From: Thermoflexus hugenholtzii JAD2
Lineage (GTDB): Bacteria > Chloroflexota > Anaerolineae > Thermoflexales > Thermoflexaceae
Reading direction: 5' to 3'
Length of the DNA stretch: 64,000 bases
NCBI RefSeq assembly: GCF_900187885.1
Contig: NZ_FYEK01000027.1
Coordinates: forward strand, 1 to 64,000
Shown here: in pieces, positions 10,784 to 63,639 of the stretch
Layout: every line of letters begins with the position of its first letter
How positions within the stretch are numbered: position 1 is the stretch's first letter
Made by a program: the position numbers and the translations under genes
Notes under the pieces: model-generated
Database searches by the model: none
Told to the model about the DNA's origin: nothing
What the model saw: only the letters and a program-made list of their open reading frames with translations

Positions 10784-12580
10784 ATGGCGCTCCGGCCGGA
10801 GTTCCCGCTGACGATCCAGGCCGACCGGACGGTCTGGCTGGAGACCCGGCATCCCGGGTATGAGCTCGCCCGGGACGCCTTGGCCCGTTTTGCGGACCTG
10901 GAGCGGAGCGCCGGGCCCATCCACGTCTACCGCATCACTCCCCTCTCGATCTGGAACGCCGCTGCCCTGGGCCTCACGGCTGCACAGATCCTGGAGGACC
11001 TGGAGCGCTTGAGCGGCGGCCAGGTCCCCGAGGGCTTGCGGGAGGACATCCGGACCTGGATGGCCCGCTACGGCCGGCTCCGCCTGGAGATGGGAAACGG
11101 GCGGCTCTGGCTGGTGGCCGACGATCCCGCCTTGCTGGCCTGGGTGCGGGCCCAATCCGTGGTGGCCCCCTTCCTGGCCCCCTCCGGAGAGGCGGAGGCG
11201 GACCGGGTGGCGGTGGAGCCCCGGGCCCGGGGTGCCCTCAAGCAGGCCCTCCTCTACCTGGGATATCCGGTGGAGGATATGGCCGGATACGTGGAGGGCG
11301 CCCGCCTGGACCTCCGGCTGCGGTCCACGTCCCGGGCCACCGGCGAGCCCTTCCGCCTGCGCCCCTATCAGGAGAAGGCCGTGGAGGCCTTCCTCCGGGC
11401 CGGCAGCGGGGTGATCCTGCTCCCCTGCGGGGCGGGCAAGACCATCGTGGGCCTGGGGGTGATGGCCCGGCTGCGCACCGCCACCCTGATCATCGCCACC
11501 AGCACGGTGGCCGCCCGCCAATGGATCGCGGAGATCCTGGACAAAACGGATCTAAGCCCCGATCAGGTCGGGGAATACACCGGCCATCGCAAGCAGATCC
11601 GTCCGGTCACGGTGGCGACTTACCAGATCCTCACCCATCGCCCCCATCGGGATTTCGAAGAGGACCTCCTCCGCCAGTTCCCGCATTTCCGCCTCTTCAG
11701 CGCCCTGGACTGGGGGTTGATCATCTACGATGAGGTGCATCTCCTGCCGGCCCCGGTCTTCCGCATCACCGCCCAGCTCCAGGCCCGCCGGCGCCTGGGT
11801 CTGACGGCCACCCTGGTGCGGGAGGATGGGCTGGAGCGGGAGGTGTTCGCCCTCATCGGCCCTAAGCGCTACGAGGCCCCCTGGCGGGAGCTGGAGGCCC
11901 GGGGCTGGATCGCCGCGGCCGAATGCCACGAGATCCGCGTCCCGATGGCCCCGGAGGATCGCCTGCGATACGTGGCCGCGGCAGAGAAGGAGCGCTACCG
12001 CCTGGCGGCCACTAACCCGGCCAAGGAGCCGGTGATCCGCCAGCTCCTCGCCCGGCACGAGGAGGACACTGTCCTCATCATCGGGCAGTATCTGGATCAG
12101 CTGGAGCGCATCGCCCGCGCTGTCCGCGCCCCCTTGATCACCGGCCGGACGCCGGTGGCGGAGCGGGAGCGGCTCTTCGATCAGCTCCGGCGCGGGGAGA
12201 TCCGCCGCCTGGTGGTCTCCCGCGTGGGCAATTTCGCCATCGACCTCCCCGACGCCAACGTGCTGATCCAGGTCTCCGGCACCTTCGGCTCGCGCCAGGA
12301 GGAAGCCCAGCGATTGGGACGGATCCTGCGGCCCAAGCGGAACGGGATCCTGGCCCACTTCTACACGCTGGTCACCCGCGACACGGTGGATCAGGACTAC
12401 GCCGCCCGGCGCCAGCTGTTCCTGGTCGAGCAGGGGTATCGCTATGAGATTCTGGAGGCCGAAGAGCTGTCCCATTACCACCCGGCCGTGGTCGACGTGG
12501 CCGCCTGGCCGCGGGCCCTCCCCCCGCAGACGTCCGCCGGGAACGGATCCTCCCCCAATGGATCTGGATCGTCTGCTTGA
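10784..12580 (+). CDS. XPB/Ssl2-type DNA repair helicase
   Basis: A 598-residue SF2 helicase with the layout of bacterial and archaeal XPB. The N-terminal ~190 residues are a helicase-associated region, then come Walker A PCGAGKT (Lys219), DEVH (Asp316), motif III LTATLVRED, motif V around VSRVGNFAIDLPDANV and motif VI QEEAQRLGRILRPK. Activity expected is ATP-dependent 3'-5' translocation and duplex opening in repair or transcription-linked processes. ATG 10784 is chosen because GGAGAAAGG precedes it; an in-frame ATG at 10751 is weaker. The 3' end overlaps the next gene by 23 bases, indicating coupling. Confidence 0.93.
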   Translation: MALRPEFPLTIQADRTVWLETRHPGYELARDALARFADLERSAGPIHVYRITPLSIWNAAALGLTAAQILEDLERLSGGQVPEGLREDIRTWMARYGRLRLEMGNGRLWLVADDPALLAWVRAQSVVAPFLAPSGEAEADRVAVEPRARGALKQALLYLGYPVEDMAGYVEGARLDLRLRSTSRATGEPFRLRPYQEKAVEAFLRAGSGVILLPCGAGKTIVGLGVMARLRTATLIIATSTVAARQWIAEILDKTDLSPDQVGEYTGHRKQIRPVTVATYQILTHRPHRDFEEDLLRQFPHFRLFSALDWGLIIYDEVHLLPAPVFRITAQLQARRRLGLTATLVREDGLEREVFALIGPKRYEAPWRELEARGWIAAAECHEIRVPMAPEDRLRYVAAAEKERYRLAATNPAKEPVIRQLLARHEEDTVLIIGQYLDQLERIARAVRAPLITGRTPVAERERLFDQLRRGEIRRLVVSRVGNFAIDLPDANVLIQVSGTFGSRQEEAQRLGRILRPKRNGILAHFYTLVTRDTVDQDYAARRQLFLVEQGYRYEILEAEELSHYHPAVVDVAAWPRALPPQTSAGNGSSPNGSGSSA

Positions 12581-57404: not shown

Positions 57405-57536
57405 ATTGTTCGTGAAGATCATCCACGATCTCGAGACGGATACTTTCTGTAGGCGTGCTGGGACCATCCTCGCGGATCGCCGCCTGCCATCGGTTCAGCC
57501 GCGAGGGGATGGCTGCCTGGCTCCGGATCTCCGCGC

Positions 57537-60500
57537 TCATCCCCATAGATGGAGCAATAAATCCTGAAGCGTTGGAGGCTCCTGCACGCGGGCCCGATCC
57601 AGATGGCGGCGGCCTTCGGGGGAGCGGGTGTAGATCAGCTCGGCTTCGCCCACGTAACGCCGCCAGGCCCGGGCGAAGGCCTCGGCGTCCGGACGTCGGA
57701 TCCCCAGGGCCTGGGGCACCGGATGGTAGGCCGGTCGGCGCAGCATCGGCGGGATCAGGGCCCGCAGCGCCTGCCAGAGGCCGGCGCGAAGCAGGTCCGG
57801 CAGGCGTTCGTCCTGGCGCAGGATGAGATAGCGCGGATTCCGGATGGGTTGAAAGAGCTCCCGGTAAGCCTGTATGAAGGCCTCCGCATCTTGCGGAGGG
57901 ACTCCTTCCAGCTGAACGCGATAAGCCCCGTCTGGAGTGGCGATCACCCGAAGGCTGTCCGGGGAGAGGGCCGGGCTCGCCTGTCCGGTTTCCCGCAACG
58001 CCTCCGCCAGTGCCCGGCCCACATCGAGAAGGATGGCGTCCGGCGGGACCTCGATGAGCAGGACACGCAACGCCCGGGCGAGGGTCTTGCGCTCTCGGAC
58101 CAGGGTGATGAGGAAACCGGCCGCCATGCTGCCCGAGGCGAGAAGAAGGCATGCGGCCAGGGACAAATCCACGGGGAGCCCTGCGAAGATCTCCCAGAAG
58201 ATCAGCCAGCCTAAGGGGAGAGCGCCGGCCAGGGCCCAGCGGAGGCTCCGCCATACCGCCGTGGCGCTCTCCCGTAGCGTGTAGACGGAGCGAAGGCGGA
58301 GGTCCTGAGGCCGAATCCGGTAGATCGGGATTTCGAAATCCATATAAGGCCGGCCGATCCCCCATGCCGCCCACGTTTCCTCTCGCCGGGCGGCGGCCTC
58401 CCGCATGATGTCGTTGAAGGCTGCGTAAGGGATGTGCTTCCAGCTCTCATCCTCCAGGGCGAGCAGCAGGCCCAGCAGGGGCTCTACATGAAATACTCCG
58501 CGGACGATCTGCCCGCGCAGGTCCTCGGCGCTGTTCGGGGGGAGGCCTCGCGTCAGCAAGGTGGGAGCGAGCCGCATGGCGTAGCGGGCGGGGCTGGCGG
58601 GGATGGCCACGCCCCACAGGTGATCGTGACGGCGCAGGAACCGCCGTAGATCCAGGTCTCCCCACTCGAAGTCCGGTGCGACGCAGACCACATCCCAGTT
58701 GTGGGCCACCTTGTGCGGCCACTCGGGGTCCAGGCGCAGGGAGCGCCCGCGCAGCTGCTGAACGGCGGTGCTGGTGGTCACGCCGGTCAGATCGATCAAT
58801 GTGTTCAGCGAGAGGGCGTCCCACCCTTCGCCGAAGATCTTCCGGGTGCCAATGAGCAGGCGGATCCGCCCCTGTTCCATCATCTGGGTGACCAGAGGGA
58901 CATACACCCGTGGCCCCCAGCCGGATCCTTTCCCACGCACTTCGTAATAGCCCGGACGTCGGTGCAGGGTCAGCTCGATCTGCATCCCGCGCCGCTGGCG
59001 GAACTCCTCCCAGAAGGCCTGGAAGATGGGCTGAAAGCCCTCGGGGATCCACAGGGAGCGGCCGGTCACGAAGATGGGGCGCAGGTCGATCAGCTCCGGA
59101 TCTTGGATCAGCCGGCGGAAGACGCGTCGCCCGCTGCCCAGATCGGCATCGGATAGACCGGGCTCCTGCCGGAGCCGGCGGAGGCCGCTGGTGCTCTGTT
59201 CGAAATCCACCACGAGGACCGCGCGGAGCCGTTCGCCCAGGCTTCGCTTCTCGGCCCGCAGGATCTCCCGCGCGGCCTCGATCTTGCTGTCAGAGAAGGC
59301 CAGGATGAGGTCCATCGGCGAGCGGCCGGGGCGCAGGCCCTTCGGGGTAAGGGTGTAGCCCAAGGGACGCAGGCGGCGGCGGAGCTCCAGGAAGCGATGG
59401 CGATCGTTTGGATCCGGACTGGGGAGGAGGACGCGCAGGGCGTAGTGCTCCAGCAGGATCAGGCGATCCTCCCGGGTGGGCCTGCGGCGCGCCTCCGGCG
59501 GGAGGGGATACTCCAGGGGCAGCTCCCCCAGGTCCCGCAGCCAGCGCAACCCGGCGATCACCAGCGGTGCATCTTCGTCGGCCAGCTCGGGCCAGCCGGC
59601 CCGCTCGCGCTCCGGGGCGCCCGCGCCCTCCTCGGGGGTTGGGAAGAGCAAGCCCTTCAGCCAGCTCCGAAAGCCCGGAGCGGTCAACACCTCCTCCAGG
59701 ACCGCCCGAAGCAGCTGATCCTGTTCCCGAAGGAAGGCGCGTTCCTGGGGGGTAGGCTCGGTGAACCAGGCCAGCTCCCGGTAGGGCGCCAGGTTTCCCT
59801 CTTTGACTACGGCGGGGGTGGGGACCTCGAAATCCACATCCCCCAGAAGGGTGGTGTAGTTCTCGTAGGCGAAATCATCCTCCGGGCTGGGGAGGGTGGC
59901 CGTCAGCCCGATGATCCGGGGCTGGTCCAGGCGGCGGATTAGATAGCGGAGCACCACCGCCCAGTAATCCAACAGATGGTGGCATTCGTCCAGGACAACG
60001 GTCCCGATCCCGTCCGCGACCAAGTCTTCGATCTGGCGCAGGGCGTTGGGGTGGAGGAAACGGGCCACGGTTTCCGGATCCTCCCGGAGCAGGCGACGCT
60101 TCAGGCGGGGATAGCGGCGGCGGATTTCCTCCCAGTAGGCCTCAGGGTTCCCGGTGCGCAGCGTGTCCAGGTAACGCTCGGCGGCCTCGGGATCGGGCAC
60201 CAGGCCCCGGGCCACCAGGTCCTCCGCCCACGCCAGCCGGGAGGCGGATTCCACGAAGGACCGTTCGGGGTCCTGAACGGCCAGCCGCTGATAGGTGAAG
60301 ATGCGCAGGGGGGCTTTCCTCTCCGGGGTGAGGGCGGCCCACTCCTCGAGGCGAGTGTCTTCGGGGAGGAACATCCGGAGCCGCTCATACCATTGCATCT
60401 CGATGGTGACGGTGGGGGCCAGGATGAGGGCCGGTCTCCGGAAGCGGCCGACGAGCTCCAGGCCGATGATGGTCTTCCCAGAGCCGGGCGGGGCGACGAT

Positions 60501-60617
60501 GTGATACCGCCGGTCATCGCGCGGCGTGTCAATGACCGCCTGGATCTGATTCAGGATCATGCGCTGATATTTGCGGAAGGGATGGCGGAATCGAAACCGC
60601 TCCCATTGAGGATCCAT
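57537..60617 (-). CDS. SF2 helicase with two C-terminal transmembrane helices
   Basis: 1026 residues. RecA-like helicase domains: Walker A APPGSGKT (Lys48), DECHH box (Asp210), motif III LTATLP (~245), a large insert rich in charged helices, motif V region GTRKIFGEGWDA and motif VI QQLRGRSLRLDP. At ~795-840 two hydrophobic helices follow (LPLGWLIFWEIFAGLPVDLSLAACLLLASGSM), then an unassigned ~180-residue C-terminal domain. Helicases are rarely membrane proteins. ATG 60617 is preferred to the GTG at 60647, with a GAGGATG ahead. It lies 80 bases downstream of the PBP gene, same strand. Confidence 0.88.
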   Translation of the reverse strand: MDPQWERFRFRHPFRKYQRMILNQIQAVIDTPRDDRRYHIVAPPGSGKTIIGLELVGRFRRPALILAPTVTIEMQWYERLRMFLPEDTRLEEWAALTPERKAPLRIFTYQRLAVQDPERSFVESASRLAWAEDLVARGLVPDPEAAERYLDTLRTGNPEAYWEEIRRRYPRLKRRLLREDPETVARFLHPNALRQIEDLVADGIGTVVLDECHHLLDYWAVVLRYLIRRLDQPRIIGLTATLPSPEDDFAYENYTTLLGDVDFEVPTPAVVKEGNLAPYRELAWFTEPTPQERAFLREQDQLLRAVLEEVLTAPGFRSWLKGLLFPTPEEGAGAPERERAGWPELADEDAPLVIAGLRWLRDLGELPLEYPLPPEARRRPTREDRLILLEHYALRVLLPSPDPNDRHRFLELRRRLRPLGYTLTPKGLRPGRSPMDLILAFSDSKIEAAREILRAEKRSLGERLRAVLVVDFEQSTSGLRRLRQEPGLSDADLGSGRRVFRRLIQDPELIDLRPIFVTGRSLWIPEGFQPIFQAFWEEFRQRRGMQIELTLHRRPGYYEVRGKGSGWGPRVYVPLVTQMMEQGRIRLLIGTRKIFGEGWDALSLNTLIDLTGVTTSTAVQQLRGRSLRLDPEWPHKVAHNWDVVCVAPDFEWGDLDLRRFLRRHDHLWGVAIPASPARYAMRLAPTLLTRGLPPNSAEDLRGQIVRGVFHVEPLLGLLLALEDESWKHIPYAAFNDIMREAAARREETWAAWGIGRPYMDFEIPIYRIRPQDLRLRSVYTLRESATAVWRSLRWALAGALPLGWLIFWEIFAGLPVDLSLAACLLLASGSMAAGFLITLVRERKTLARALRVLLIEVPPDAILLDVGRALAEALRETGQASPALSPDSLRVIATPDGAYRVQLEGVPPQDAEAFIQAYRELFQPIRNPRYLILRQDERLPDLLRAGLWQALRALIPPMLRRPAYHPVPQALGIRRPDAEAFARAWRRYVGEAELIYTRSPEGRRHLDRARVQEPPTLQDLLLHLWG

Positions 60618-60697
60618 GGCCGCTGCATCCTCGCGAACGATGAGCACTTGGGTTCAAGCTCAGGGCGTTCGACTTTCGAGCATCCTGCTCCTCATCC

Positions 60698-62827
60698 TCA
60701 CCGATCCTCCTGCGGAGGTGGGGTGGGCAGGGGGGTGAGGGGGAGGCCGTAGGCGGCCTCCAGGATCTGACGGGCGATGGGGGCGGCGACGGCGGAGCCC
60801 TGGCCACCGTGTTCCACGATCACCACCACCACCCGCTCCGGCCGATCCGCGGGGGCGTAGCACGCGAACCACGCGTGCGGTGGGCGCCCGGGGACTGTCT
60901 CCGCGGTCCCCGTCTTGCCTGCCACCGCAAAGGGCATCCCTCGGAAGATCCAAGTCGCCGTCCCCCGGGGATGGGCCGTCACGCCCACCAGACCTTCTCG
61001 GATGACCGCCAGGGTCTCCTCGGAAACGGGGAGACGCCCCTGGACCTCCGGCGGGAAGGTCTCCTCCGGGATCCCGGGAGCGGGGCCGATGCGTTGCACC
61101 AGCCGGGGCCGGTAGAGGATCCCCCCGTTGGCCACCGCCGCCAGCATCCGGGCGATCTGCAAGGGGGTCACCAGGAGATCGCTCTGCCCGATAGCCATGT
61201 TCACCGCGTCCCCCACGGACCAGGGCCGCCCCCCTTGCTGCGCCCGCCACGCCGCGTCCGGCACCAGCCCCGCCTCCTCCGGCACCCCCTGGATCCCGGT
61301 GAGGACCCCCAGCCCGAAGGCCCGGGCCATCCGCGGAAGGAGGTCCGGGTCCTGCTGATGGAGGGCGAACCCGAGCTGATAGAAGGCCACGTTGCAGGAG
61401 ACAATGAGGGCGGTGGGAAGATCCACCACGCCGTGACCGGTCCGCAGCCAGCACCATTTCCGGTAGCCTGGCCCCAGCCCGTCCCAGTAGCCCGGATCCT
61501 GAAAGGTGCTGCGGGCGGTGAACCCGTGGGTCAGGGCGGCGGCCATCACCACGATCTTGAAGATCGAGCCCGGCGGATACAGGCCCTGGGTGGCCCGGTT
61601 CAGGAAAGCCCCCGGTGGGGGCGGTGGCGGGTTCGGCCCGATCAGGGCGTTGGGATCAAAGGCCGGCCGGCTGACCATGGCCAGGATGTCCCCGTTGCGC
61701 GGATCCATCACCACCACCGCTCCCGTCCGATCCCCGAAGATCTCCTCCACCCGAGCCTGGAGCTCCCGATCCAGAGTGGTGGTGATGGGACGGCCCGGCG
61801 TGAAAGGCCGCTCGGCGAGCAACCGCGAGGGACCGTCCTCCGGGCGGGGGGGCTGGATCCACAGGCGGCCGCCGTGGGTCCCGGCCAGGTAAGGCTCCCC
61901 CCACGCCTCTAAGCCCATCCGCCCCACCCACTCGTCGCCCCGATAGCCCCGGCGCCGCCACGCGTCCAATTCCTCGGCCGGGATCTTGCCCACAATCCCC
62001 ACCGTTTGCGCGGCCACGCCGGCGTAGATCCGCCCGCTGCGGGAGCGCAGGACCACGCCGGGGGTGGCCTCCAGGTCGGTGAGGAATGGCGCCACCCGAT
62101 CGGCGGGGAGGGCGAGGATCGGCATATACCAGTCCGGCCGCCCGCCGGCGTAACGCGCCCGGATGGTCTCCGGAGGGAGCCCGGTGGCCTGGGTCAGGCG
62201 CGCGAGCAGTTGCCCTTCGTCGGCGATCTGCCCCGGCACCACGCCGATCTCCACCCATTCCCCCTGGACGGCCAGGCCACGTCCTTCGCGGTCGTAGAGG
62301 TTGGCCCGCTCGGGGATCACGTATTCCACCTGCAGCCGTTCGCCCTCCTGAAGCTCCGGCCAGAGGAGGGCATCCCGCCAGACCACCCGCCAGTCGCCGG
62401 TGGTCCAGCGCAGCTCCAGCGTGCCCTCCGCCTCGCGCTCCCCGAACAGGGCGGTCTTCCAACGGATGCGGTAGCGGGCCCGGGCAGTCTCCCCTTCCTC
62501 GATCAGACTCAGGGGCTGGATCTCGATAGCCTGCACCCCGGCGGCGTTGAGGGTCTCCCGCCAGCGTGCCCGGAGGTCCTCCCGGGGCATGGCGGCCTGG
62601 GAGGCGGGGGTGAGCAGCGCCCAGAGGTCATCGATCGCTTCCCGCGTAAGAGCCTCCAGGGCCGCCGTCGCCGTCCCGGCCGGAGAAGGCCGGGGCGTGG
62701 GGGTGGGCGGCGCCGGGGTGGGCGTGGGAGGGGGAGGCGAAAGAACCCGGCACGCGCTCAGCCACCCTCCCGCCGCGGCCGGAAGCGCCCGCAACAGGAA
62801 GGACCGACGGGTCCATCCCTTCCTCAT
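60698..62827 (-). CDS. Class B penicillin-binding protein with MecA-N-like domain, Tat-type lipoprotein
   Basis: 709 residues. N terminus WTRRSFLLRALPAAAGGWLSAC combines a twin-arginine S/T-R-R-x-F-L motif with a lipobox ending at Cys26, then a Pro-Thr linker. Residues ~65-175 match the NTF2-like MecA_N domain, followed by a dimerisation domain and the transpeptidase with SIFK (Ser421), SCN (VSCNVAFYQ) and KTG (Lys638). So it is of the PBP2a/PBP3 type, exported and lipid-anchored. AAGGAGG precedes ATG 62827, which overlaps the recombinase stop. Confidence 0.9.
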   Translation of the reverse strand: MRKGWTRRSFLLRALPAAAGGWLSACRVLSPPPPTPTPAPPTPTPRPSPAGTATAALEALTREAIDDLWALLTPASQAAMPREDLRARWRETLNAAGVQAIEIQPLSLIEEGETARARYRIRWKTALFGEREAEGTLELRWTTGDWRVVWRDALLWPELQEGERLQVEYVIPERANLYDREGRGLAVQGEWVEIGVVPGQIADEGQLLARLTQATGLPPETIRARYAGGRPDWYMPILALPADRVAPFLTDLEATPGVVLRSRSGRIYAGVAAQTVGIVGKIPAEELDAWRRRGYRGDEWVGRMGLEAWGEPYLAGTHGGRLWIQPPRPEDGPSRLLAERPFTPGRPITTTLDRELQARVEEIFGDRTGAVVVMDPRNGDILAMVSRPAFDPNALIGPNPPPPPPGAFLNRATQGLYPPGSIFKIVVMAAALTHGFTARSTFQDPGYWDGLGPGYRKWCWLRTGHGVVDLPTALIVSCNVAFYQLGFALHQQDPDLLPRMARAFGLGVLTGIQGVPEEAGLVPDAAWRAQQGGRPWSVGDAVNMAIGQSDLLVTPLQIARMLAAVANGGILYRPRLVQRIGPAPGIPEETFPPEVQGRLPVSEETLAVIREGLVGVTAHPRGTATWIFRGMPFAVAGKTGTAETVPGRPPHAWFACYAPADRPERVVVVIVEHGGQGSAVAAPIARQILEAAYGLPLTPLPTPPPQEDR

Positions 62828-63639
62828 CCTGCCTCCTTCCCCGGGGTCAAGAGGGGAAGGCCCGGGGGTTGCCGCAGCCGTTCTGGGGAAACGTCCGGGA
62901 GCCCCGCCCGCCGGCCGAGGGCCCGGATCGCCCGCCACAGGCCCTGGCGGGTAAGCGGATCCCCCCGGCGGTTGAGGAGCAGAGCCCGGTTCTCCGGGTC
63001 CCGAACCAGACGAGGGCGTCCCGTCTGGAGATACCGGATCAGGGATTCCCGAACCGGCGCCGGGAGCGTGTAGATGCGCAAGCCGGCGCGGGTCTGGATC
63101 CGCAGGCGCTCCCCCTCTGGATCGATGTCCTCCAGGGTGAGGGCAACGGCCTGGCCGGCCCGCAACCCCAGTTTGCCGATGAGATGCAAGATCAGGCGGT
63201 CTCGTAGCCCCAGGGGGGTCTCCGGAAGGGACCGGGCGAAGTCCATCAGGCGCTGGCGCTGATCCGGGGGAAGGGGGAGCCGGGAGCCCCGGGTGGGGAG
63301 GTGCCAGCGCAGCGCGAGGGCCGGGTTCTCCGCGATGGCTCCTTCCTGCGCCAGGAAGCGGAAGAAGGCTCGCAGGACGGCCAGCCGTTGATTCCAGGTG
63401 CGGACCGATCCGCCGCGCTGGAGCACGTTTTCATCCAGGAAGCGTTGCAACGCCGGGGCGTCCACCTCAGCCCAGCGGCGGAAGCCCCGGACCTCGAGGA
63501 AACGGACGAGCCGGAAGAGGACGTGTCGATAAGCACGGAGGGTGGAAGGGGCAGTTCCCTCCGCGGCGATCCGGGCGTCCAGGAAGCGGAGGACCCAGAT
63601 CCCGAGGGCTTCCGATGGAGCATCCGTTCGGGCGTTCAT
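62824..63639 (-). CDS. Tyrosine recombinase-like protein lacking catalytic residues
   Basis: 271 residues. N-terminal SAM-like DNA-binding domain (APSTLRAYRHVLFRLVRFLEVRG) and the first half of the integrase catalytic domain are well kept, with the first Arg in KLGLRAGQAVALT (~160). The H-x-x-R box reads SPERLR (His lost), the second His region reads PPGLPLL where active enzymes have TFATHLL, and the protein ends there, so the nucleophilic Tyr is absent. It may be a DNA-binding-only or decaying protein. The stop overlaps the PBP start (ATGA). ATG 63639 follows GGAGGTG. Confidence 0.82.
   Translation of the reverse strand: MNARTDAPSEALGIWVLRFLDARIAAEGTAPSTLRAYRHVLFRLVRFLEVRGFRRWAEVDAPALQRFLDENVLQRGGSVRTWNQRLAVLRAFFRFLAQEGAIAENPALALRWHLPTRGSRLPLPPDQRQRLMDFARSLPETPLGLRDRLILHLIGKLGLRAGQAVALTLEDIDPEGERLRIQTRAGLRIYTLPAPVRESLIRYLQTGRPRLVRDPENRALLLNRRGDPLTRQGLWRAIRALGRRAGLPDVSPERLRQPPGLPLLTPGKEAG

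What the first reader, a model, noticed from the sequence alone, without database searches (positions are those of the whole stretch)
57537..60617. Membrane-anchored SF2 helicase with an unassigned C-terminal domain
An intact DECH-box helicase of 1026 residues has two membrane helices near 795-840 and a ~180-residue domain of no known family. Helicases tethered to the membrane are rare and recall sensors of incoming DNA or RNA. It is the strongest candidate here for an unrecognised system.
Basis: partly seen in the sequence, partly recalled or inferred. Interest (0 to 1): 0.65.

Follow-up and report, generated by a model that had tools for sequence, protein, structure and literature searches.

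The report
Membrane-anchored accessory SF2 helicase
A hot-spring Chloroflexota bacterium carries an intact ATP-driven DNA/RNA motor protein that looks anchored in the cell membrane and ends in a domain with no known relative; it is an optional, patchily inherited gene in several bacterial phyla, possibly used against foreign DNA, but no partner genes or experiments show its job.

Summary
The gene is real: minus strand, 57537-60617, 1026 aa, Thermoflexus (Chloroflexota). All SF2 motifs are intact; the closest known motor is XPB/Rad25, but the genome has its own true XPB. A hydrophobic hairpin (residues ~795-841) is kept by position and hydrophobicity, not sequence, in 29 of 31 relatives, has positive-inside charges and is the fastest-evolving part of the protein: a membrane anchor, not a buried core. 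It is absent in alphaproteobacterial relatives, so anchoring is optional. The last ~175 residues form a confidently predicted, family-wide domain with no Pfam, PDB or viral-fold match. The gene is accessory: cleanly missing in a 97%-identical genome, decayed in two congeners, present in ~3% of sampled Chloroflexota, with distant relatives in Bacillota, Rhodobacterales and two fecal contigs. At its site, sister genomes carry STAND-type NTPases; single relatives sit beside a type I R-M system and a BREX operon. But no neighbour is conserved, and a control gene set held comparable defence hits. So the anatomy is confirmed, 'an unrecognised system' is not. Best guess: a stand-alone membrane-tethered DNA (or RNA) translocase acting on nucleic acid at the membrane, plausibly defensive (about 0.4).

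The parts
57537..60617 (-). Whole gene, 1026 codons plus stop, ATG start (alternative GTG at 60647)
   Evidence: 86.6% aa identical to the Thermoflexus G006 copy with dN/dS 0.21
59808..60617 (-). RecA-like domain 1 (residues ~1-270): ResIII/DEAD match at 13-246
   Evidence: XPB/Rad25 best PDB relatives, E 2e-14
60471..60494 (-). Motif I (Walker A) APPGSGKT, residues 42-49
59976..59990 (-). Motif II (Walker B) DECHH, residues 210-214
59895..59903 (-). Motif III TAT, residues 239-241
59328..59747 (-). Helical insert between the two motor domains (residues ~291-430), fast-evolving
58548..59327 (-). RecA-like domain 2 (residues ~431-690), weakly modelled
58818..58850 (-). Motif V GTRKIFGEGWD, residues 590-600
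58734..58760 (-). Motif VI QQLRGRSLR, residues 620-628
58236..58547 (-). Linker (residues ~691-794)
58095..58235 (-). Predicted transmembrane hairpin (residues 795-841), both ends predicted cytosolic
   Evidence: AF2 helices 781-813 and 820-841
57540..58064 (-). Unassigned C-terminal alpha/beta domain (residues 852-1026) with RYL, VP and YTR..GR..L..AR blocks
   Evidence: (pTM 0.73)
57447..60689 (.). Stretch absent from the closest genome G004, which has 249 bp here between the same two core genes

Best explanation
A stand-alone, membrane-tethered SF2 nucleic-acid translocase of a previously unnamed accessory family. Shown by sequence: an intact XPB/Res-like ATPase motor, a position-conserved hydrophobic hairpin, a conserved C-terminal domain of unknown kind, and patchy presence with loss, decay and transfer. 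Inferred: both motor and C-terminal domain face the cytosol next to the inner membrane; the motor loads on duplex DNA (or RNA) appearing there, such as incoming phage or plasmid DNA, and by ATP-driven translocation unwinds, strips or blocks it, with the C-terminal domain binding the substrate or a partner. The protective role is the least certain step. Since no nuclease was recognised in the protein, destruction would need a host nuclease, or the effect is obstruction.
For: Motifs intact across relatives. Hairpin conserved as hydrophobicity with positive-inside charges and least constrained in sequence. Accessory behaviour typical of defence genes: absent in a 97%-identical genome with both flanks kept, remnants in G003 and G007, 19 of 396 class and 13 of 400 phylum genomes, transfer across classes (G405 nested in another class's clade, 100/100), distant relatives in other phyla. 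Same site in sister genomes carries STAND-type NTPases: NB-ARC-like in G006 and nSTAND1-like in the G001 contig. Single relatives beside type I R-M (L025) and near BREX (L097). Purifying selection, dN/dS 0.21.
Against: No conserved partner gene; most neighbours are metabolic. A PADLOC scan of 129 neighbours against 115 control proteins shows no clear excess of defence genes. No PADLOC model fits beyond the generic motor. Alphaproteobacterial relatives lack the hairpin. AF2 of the full protein is weak (pLDDT 61.5). Nucleic-acid binding, membrane location and protection were not tested experimentally.
Confidence: 0.4

Rival explanations
1. An accessory DNA-repair, replication-restart or RNA-remodelling helicase that happens to sit at the membrane; its loss is tolerated because other helicases overlap with it.
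For: Closest motor relatives are XPB/Rad25, UvrB, RadD and UvsW; neighbours mostly metabolic or housekeeping; purifying selection.
Against: A true XPB (ERCC3_RAD25_C, E 1e-48) is already encoded at 10784-12577; repair helicases are not usually so patchy, nor membrane-anchored (own knowledge).
Confidence: 0.35
2. A DNA-uptake motor comparable to ComFA, the membrane-localised ATPase assisting ComEC in transformation.
For: A membrane-bound SF2-type ATPase is the right general kind (PMC8262900); ComEC is encoded in the genome.
Against: Only three cysteines (212, 645, 823), so no four-Cys zinc finger; not near com genes; Thermoflexus G004, G005 and G008 have ComEC but lack this gene.
Confidence: 0.08
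3. The hydrophobic segment is a buried helical hairpin of a soluble protein, not a membrane anchor.
For: Only about two helices; peak Kyte-Doolittle 2.05 is moderate and L023 falls below the threshold.
Against: Fastest-evolving segment while hydrophobicity is kept; 29 of 31 relatives have it; positive-inside charges; missing in Tritonibacter without loss of neighbouring domains.
Confidence: 0.07
4. A core component of a multi-gene conflict system with the STAND NTPase and membrane protein seen beside it in Thermoflexus G006.
For: STAND gene, membrane protein and helicase lie in one direction with gaps of about 70-130 bp in L022; another STAND-type NTPase adjoins the helicase in the G001 contig.
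Against: Neither is present in the window or in other families; the two STAND proteins are of different subfamilies.
Confidence: 0.1

Closest known systems
XPB/Rad25 (ERCC3) DNA helicases
   Same: Motor domain 1 is the best sequence and fold match (PDB 2fz4, 6p4f, E 2e-14 to 6e-14 by profile; Foldseek 6p66, 2fwr)
   Different: No ERCC3_RAD25_C or N-terminal XPB domains; large insert, membrane hairpin and a different C-terminal domain; a true XPB is encoded elsewhere in the window
Type I/III restriction motor subunits (HsdR, Res)
   Same: Pfam ResIII motor; one relative lies about 220 bp downstream of an hsdR gene (L025)
   Different: No nuclease domain found, no methylase or specificity partner in the window
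ComFA competence ATPase
   Same: Membrane-localised SF2-type ATPase
   Different: ComFA is described as membrane-associated and belongs to the com machinery; here an integral hairpin is predicted, with no zinc finger and no link to com genes
Membrane-anchored DNA translocases FtsK/SpoIIIE (by way of working)
   Same: A DNA motor tied to the inner membrane by transmembrane helices
   Different: FtsK-type motors are hexameric RecA/HerA-like ATPases, not SF2 (own knowledge)
Zorya ZorD, Hachiman HamB and other defence-system SF2 helicases (by way of working)
   Same: SF2 motors in anti-phage defence
   Different: Those are soluble subunits of multi-gene systems (own knowledge); PADLOC models show no family-level match here

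Membership tests
SF2 helicase/translocase | Motifs I, II, III, V, VI intact and conserved | tested here: met
SF2 helicase/translocase | Nucleic-acid-stimulated ATPase or unwinding | not testable with these tools
   needs purified protein
XPB/Rad25 | Full-length match over the equivalog cut-off (610 bits, NF045503) | tested here: not met
   39.4 bits over residues 14-118 only
XPB/Rad25 | ERCC3_RAD25_C domain | tested here: not met
   absent here, present in the separate XPB at 10784-12577
ComFA | Four-cysteine zinc finger | tested here: not met
   only Cys 212, 645, 823
ComFA | Linkage or co-occurrence with competence genes | tested here: not met
   ComEC present in genomes lacking the gene; no com neighbours
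Type I/III restriction enzyme | Nuclease domain and methylase/specificity partner | tested here: not met
Known anti-phage systems (PADLOC 2.0.0, 2023) | Match to a system-specific model over most of its length | tested here: not met
   only weak motor-domain matches; later systems are not in this library
Anti-phage defence in general | Enrichment next to defence genes | tested here: inconclusive
   type I R-M and BREX beside single members, but control regions hold comparable hits
Anti-phage defence in general | Protection against phage | not testable with these tools
   needs phage challenge
Integral membrane protein | Conserved hydrophobic hairpin with positive-inside charge | tested here: met
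   experiment still needed

The most novel reading that the evidence does not exclude
A single-protein, membrane-anchored SF2 translocase that meets foreign DNA as it enters through the inner membrane: a stand-alone defence protein with a new C-terminal domain, in several phyla and not in the defence catalogue searched here.
Probability: 0.27. Interest if true: 0.75.

Novelty: new variant of a known kind. Interest (0 to 1): 0.45.

Why it matters
Helicase motors integrally tethered to a bacterial membrane are unusual, and this one forms a coherent, unnamed family across Chloroflexota, Bacillota and Alphaproteobacteria with a domain that has no recognised fold relative. Natural presence/absence pairs at 97% identity, and relatives with and without the anchor, make it directly testable whether anchoring an SF2 motor gives protection against, or handling of, entering nucleic acid.

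Tried and rejected
Phage origin: four viral-contig scans found no family member and one found only generic helicases; phage records gave only two small unverified fecal contigs, probably bacterial (own judgement). Known defence family: no PADLOC fit. Canonical XPB: rejected. Competence: rejected. Conserved operon: rejected. Defence-island enrichment by a control comparison: not shown (rough, as the table lists only 25 families and kinase models dominate it). Recent arrival in the window's lineage: rejected, since dS to the G006 copy (0.35) is like that of core neighbours (0.22-0.34), so the G004 absence is most simply a loss. Internal beta-alpha-beta duplication in the C-terminal domain: suggestive only (profile comparison P 0.0009, best of 20). 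Full-length structure: too weak to interpret domain 2. Paper searches on membrane-anchored helicases gave nothing relevant.

Full report
Observation. The frame at 57537-60617 is open on the minus strand and encodes 1026 residues from ATG, or 1036 from a GTG at 60647. Only the motor matches Pfam (ResIII and DEAD, residues 13-246). All SF2 motifs are present and invariant or nearly so in about 30 relatives. The protein is under purifying selection (dN/dS 0.21 to the Thermoflexus G006 copy and 0.23 to the G002 copy), so it is a working gene.

Membrane anchor. Windows of 19 residues above 1.6 on the Kyte-Doolittle scale start only between 796 and 823. In the family alignment 29 of 31 proteins have at least one such segment at this place, with 45 segments inside and 4 outside it, although the sequence there is hardly conserved; the flanks are basic on average and the short loop is neutral to acidic, as for a hairpin with both ends in the cytosol. 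The 60 hairpin codons have dN/dS 1.34 against 0.14-0.21 in the other regions of the same comparison, and 0.56 against 0.13-0.40 in the second comparison; the first value rests on few sites, but slow evolution as expected of a buried core is not seen. The Tritonibacter relative lacks the hairpin but keeps the motor and the C-terminal domain, so the anchor is an optional part. This is prediction; no membrane experiment exists.

C-terminal domain. Residues 852-1026 contain blocks (R929-Y930, V967-P968, W985, and in most clades YTR..GR..L..AR) shared across the family, though the YTR block is lost in a divergent Chloroflexota clade. AlphaFold2 predicts it with core pLDDT mostly near or above 90 and pTM 0.73 from six sequences: helix, strand, then two beta-alpha-beta units and a closing helix. 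There is no PDB relative by profile (best E 0.04, judged spurious) or by fold (best E 0.27), nor among viral models. A library of predicted cellular structures was not available. The two beta-alpha-beta units may be a duplication (suggestive).

Relationship. The motor is nearest to XPB/Rad25, with Foldseek agreeing for a weak full-length model (pLDDT 61.5). It is not XPB: it fails the equivalog cut-off, lacks the ERCC3_RAD25_C domain, and the same window has a true XPB at 10784-12577. No PADLOC family fits.

Distribution. Relatives occur in Thermoflexus and Anaerolineales, in 19 of 396 class genomes and 13 of 400 phylum genomes, and at greater distance in a Paenibacillus plasmid, Rhodobacterales plasmids and two fecal contigs deposited as phage. 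None was found in the IMG/VR viral contigs. The tree groups a genome from another class inside a well-supported clade, consistent with transfer.

Site. In G004, 96.8% identical over the left flank, homology stops at window 57446 and resumes at 60690, with 249 bp instead of 3.2 kb between the same two core genes. G006 keeps the helicase at this site and carries beside it a STAND-type NTPase and a membrane protein. Contig C92 of G001, nearly identical to G002 and possibly foreign to its bin, has another STAND-type NTPase there. G003 and G007 keep remnants with internal stops. Since dS to G006 is like that of core genes, the gene was most simply inherited and repeatedly lost. This is a small variable site, and the gene is dispensable.

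Neighbours. Over more than 20 further loci no partner recurs across families. L025 has a type I R-M set just upstream, L097 has brxA and brxC a few kb away, and L066 has a MoxR/DUF5682/VWA cluster. Against this, a rough PADLOC comparison of 129 neighbours with 115 control proteins shows no clear excess: the neighbour table is led by kinase models hit by three proteins, and the controls include R-M genes. Defence linkage is therefore unproven. ComEC occurs with and without the helicase, so competence is not indicated.

Reading. Shown: an intact motor, a probable membrane hairpin, a new conserved domain and accessory inheritance. Inferred: translocation on nucleic acid next to the membrane. Speculative: protection against entering DNA. 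I put 0.4 on the defence-type translocase and 0.35 on an accessory repair or RNA role. I rank it as a new variant of a known kind (SF2 motors), of moderate interest, because a coherent new family with natural presence/absence pairs is testable, while the claim of an unrecognised system is not yet supported.

Noticed in passing
62827-63639 (-): A tyrosine-recombinase-like protein (SAM-like plus Phage_integrase domains) that ends before the usual HxxR...Y catalytic tail; four Thermoflexus genomes share the shortened end, so it looks like a conserved, catalytically incomplete recombinase.
   Followed up: partly
10784-12577 (+): A true bacterial XPB (ERCC3_RAD25_C, Helicase_C_3) in the same window, useful as an internal contrast.
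   Followed up: yes
L022:185-4262: An NB-ARC/STAND-type NTPase and a membrane protein of no clear family directly upstream of the helicase in Thermoflexus G006; a possible variable-site conflict module.
   Followed up: partly
L071:6303-9858: nSTAND1-like NTPase and an 832-aa AAA_22 protein with membrane helices beside the helicase end in contig C92 of the G001 bin, a contig near-identical to G002 and perhaps misbinned.
   Followed up: partly
L063, L065, L099, L100 (helicase frames): Some relatives have open frames extended by 100-290 residues at the N terminus; real extensions or wrong starts were not resolved.
   Followed up: no
L057:8059-11180: The Rhodovulum plasmid copy is split over two frames, apparently a frameshifted pseudogene annotated as two proteins.
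   Followed up: no
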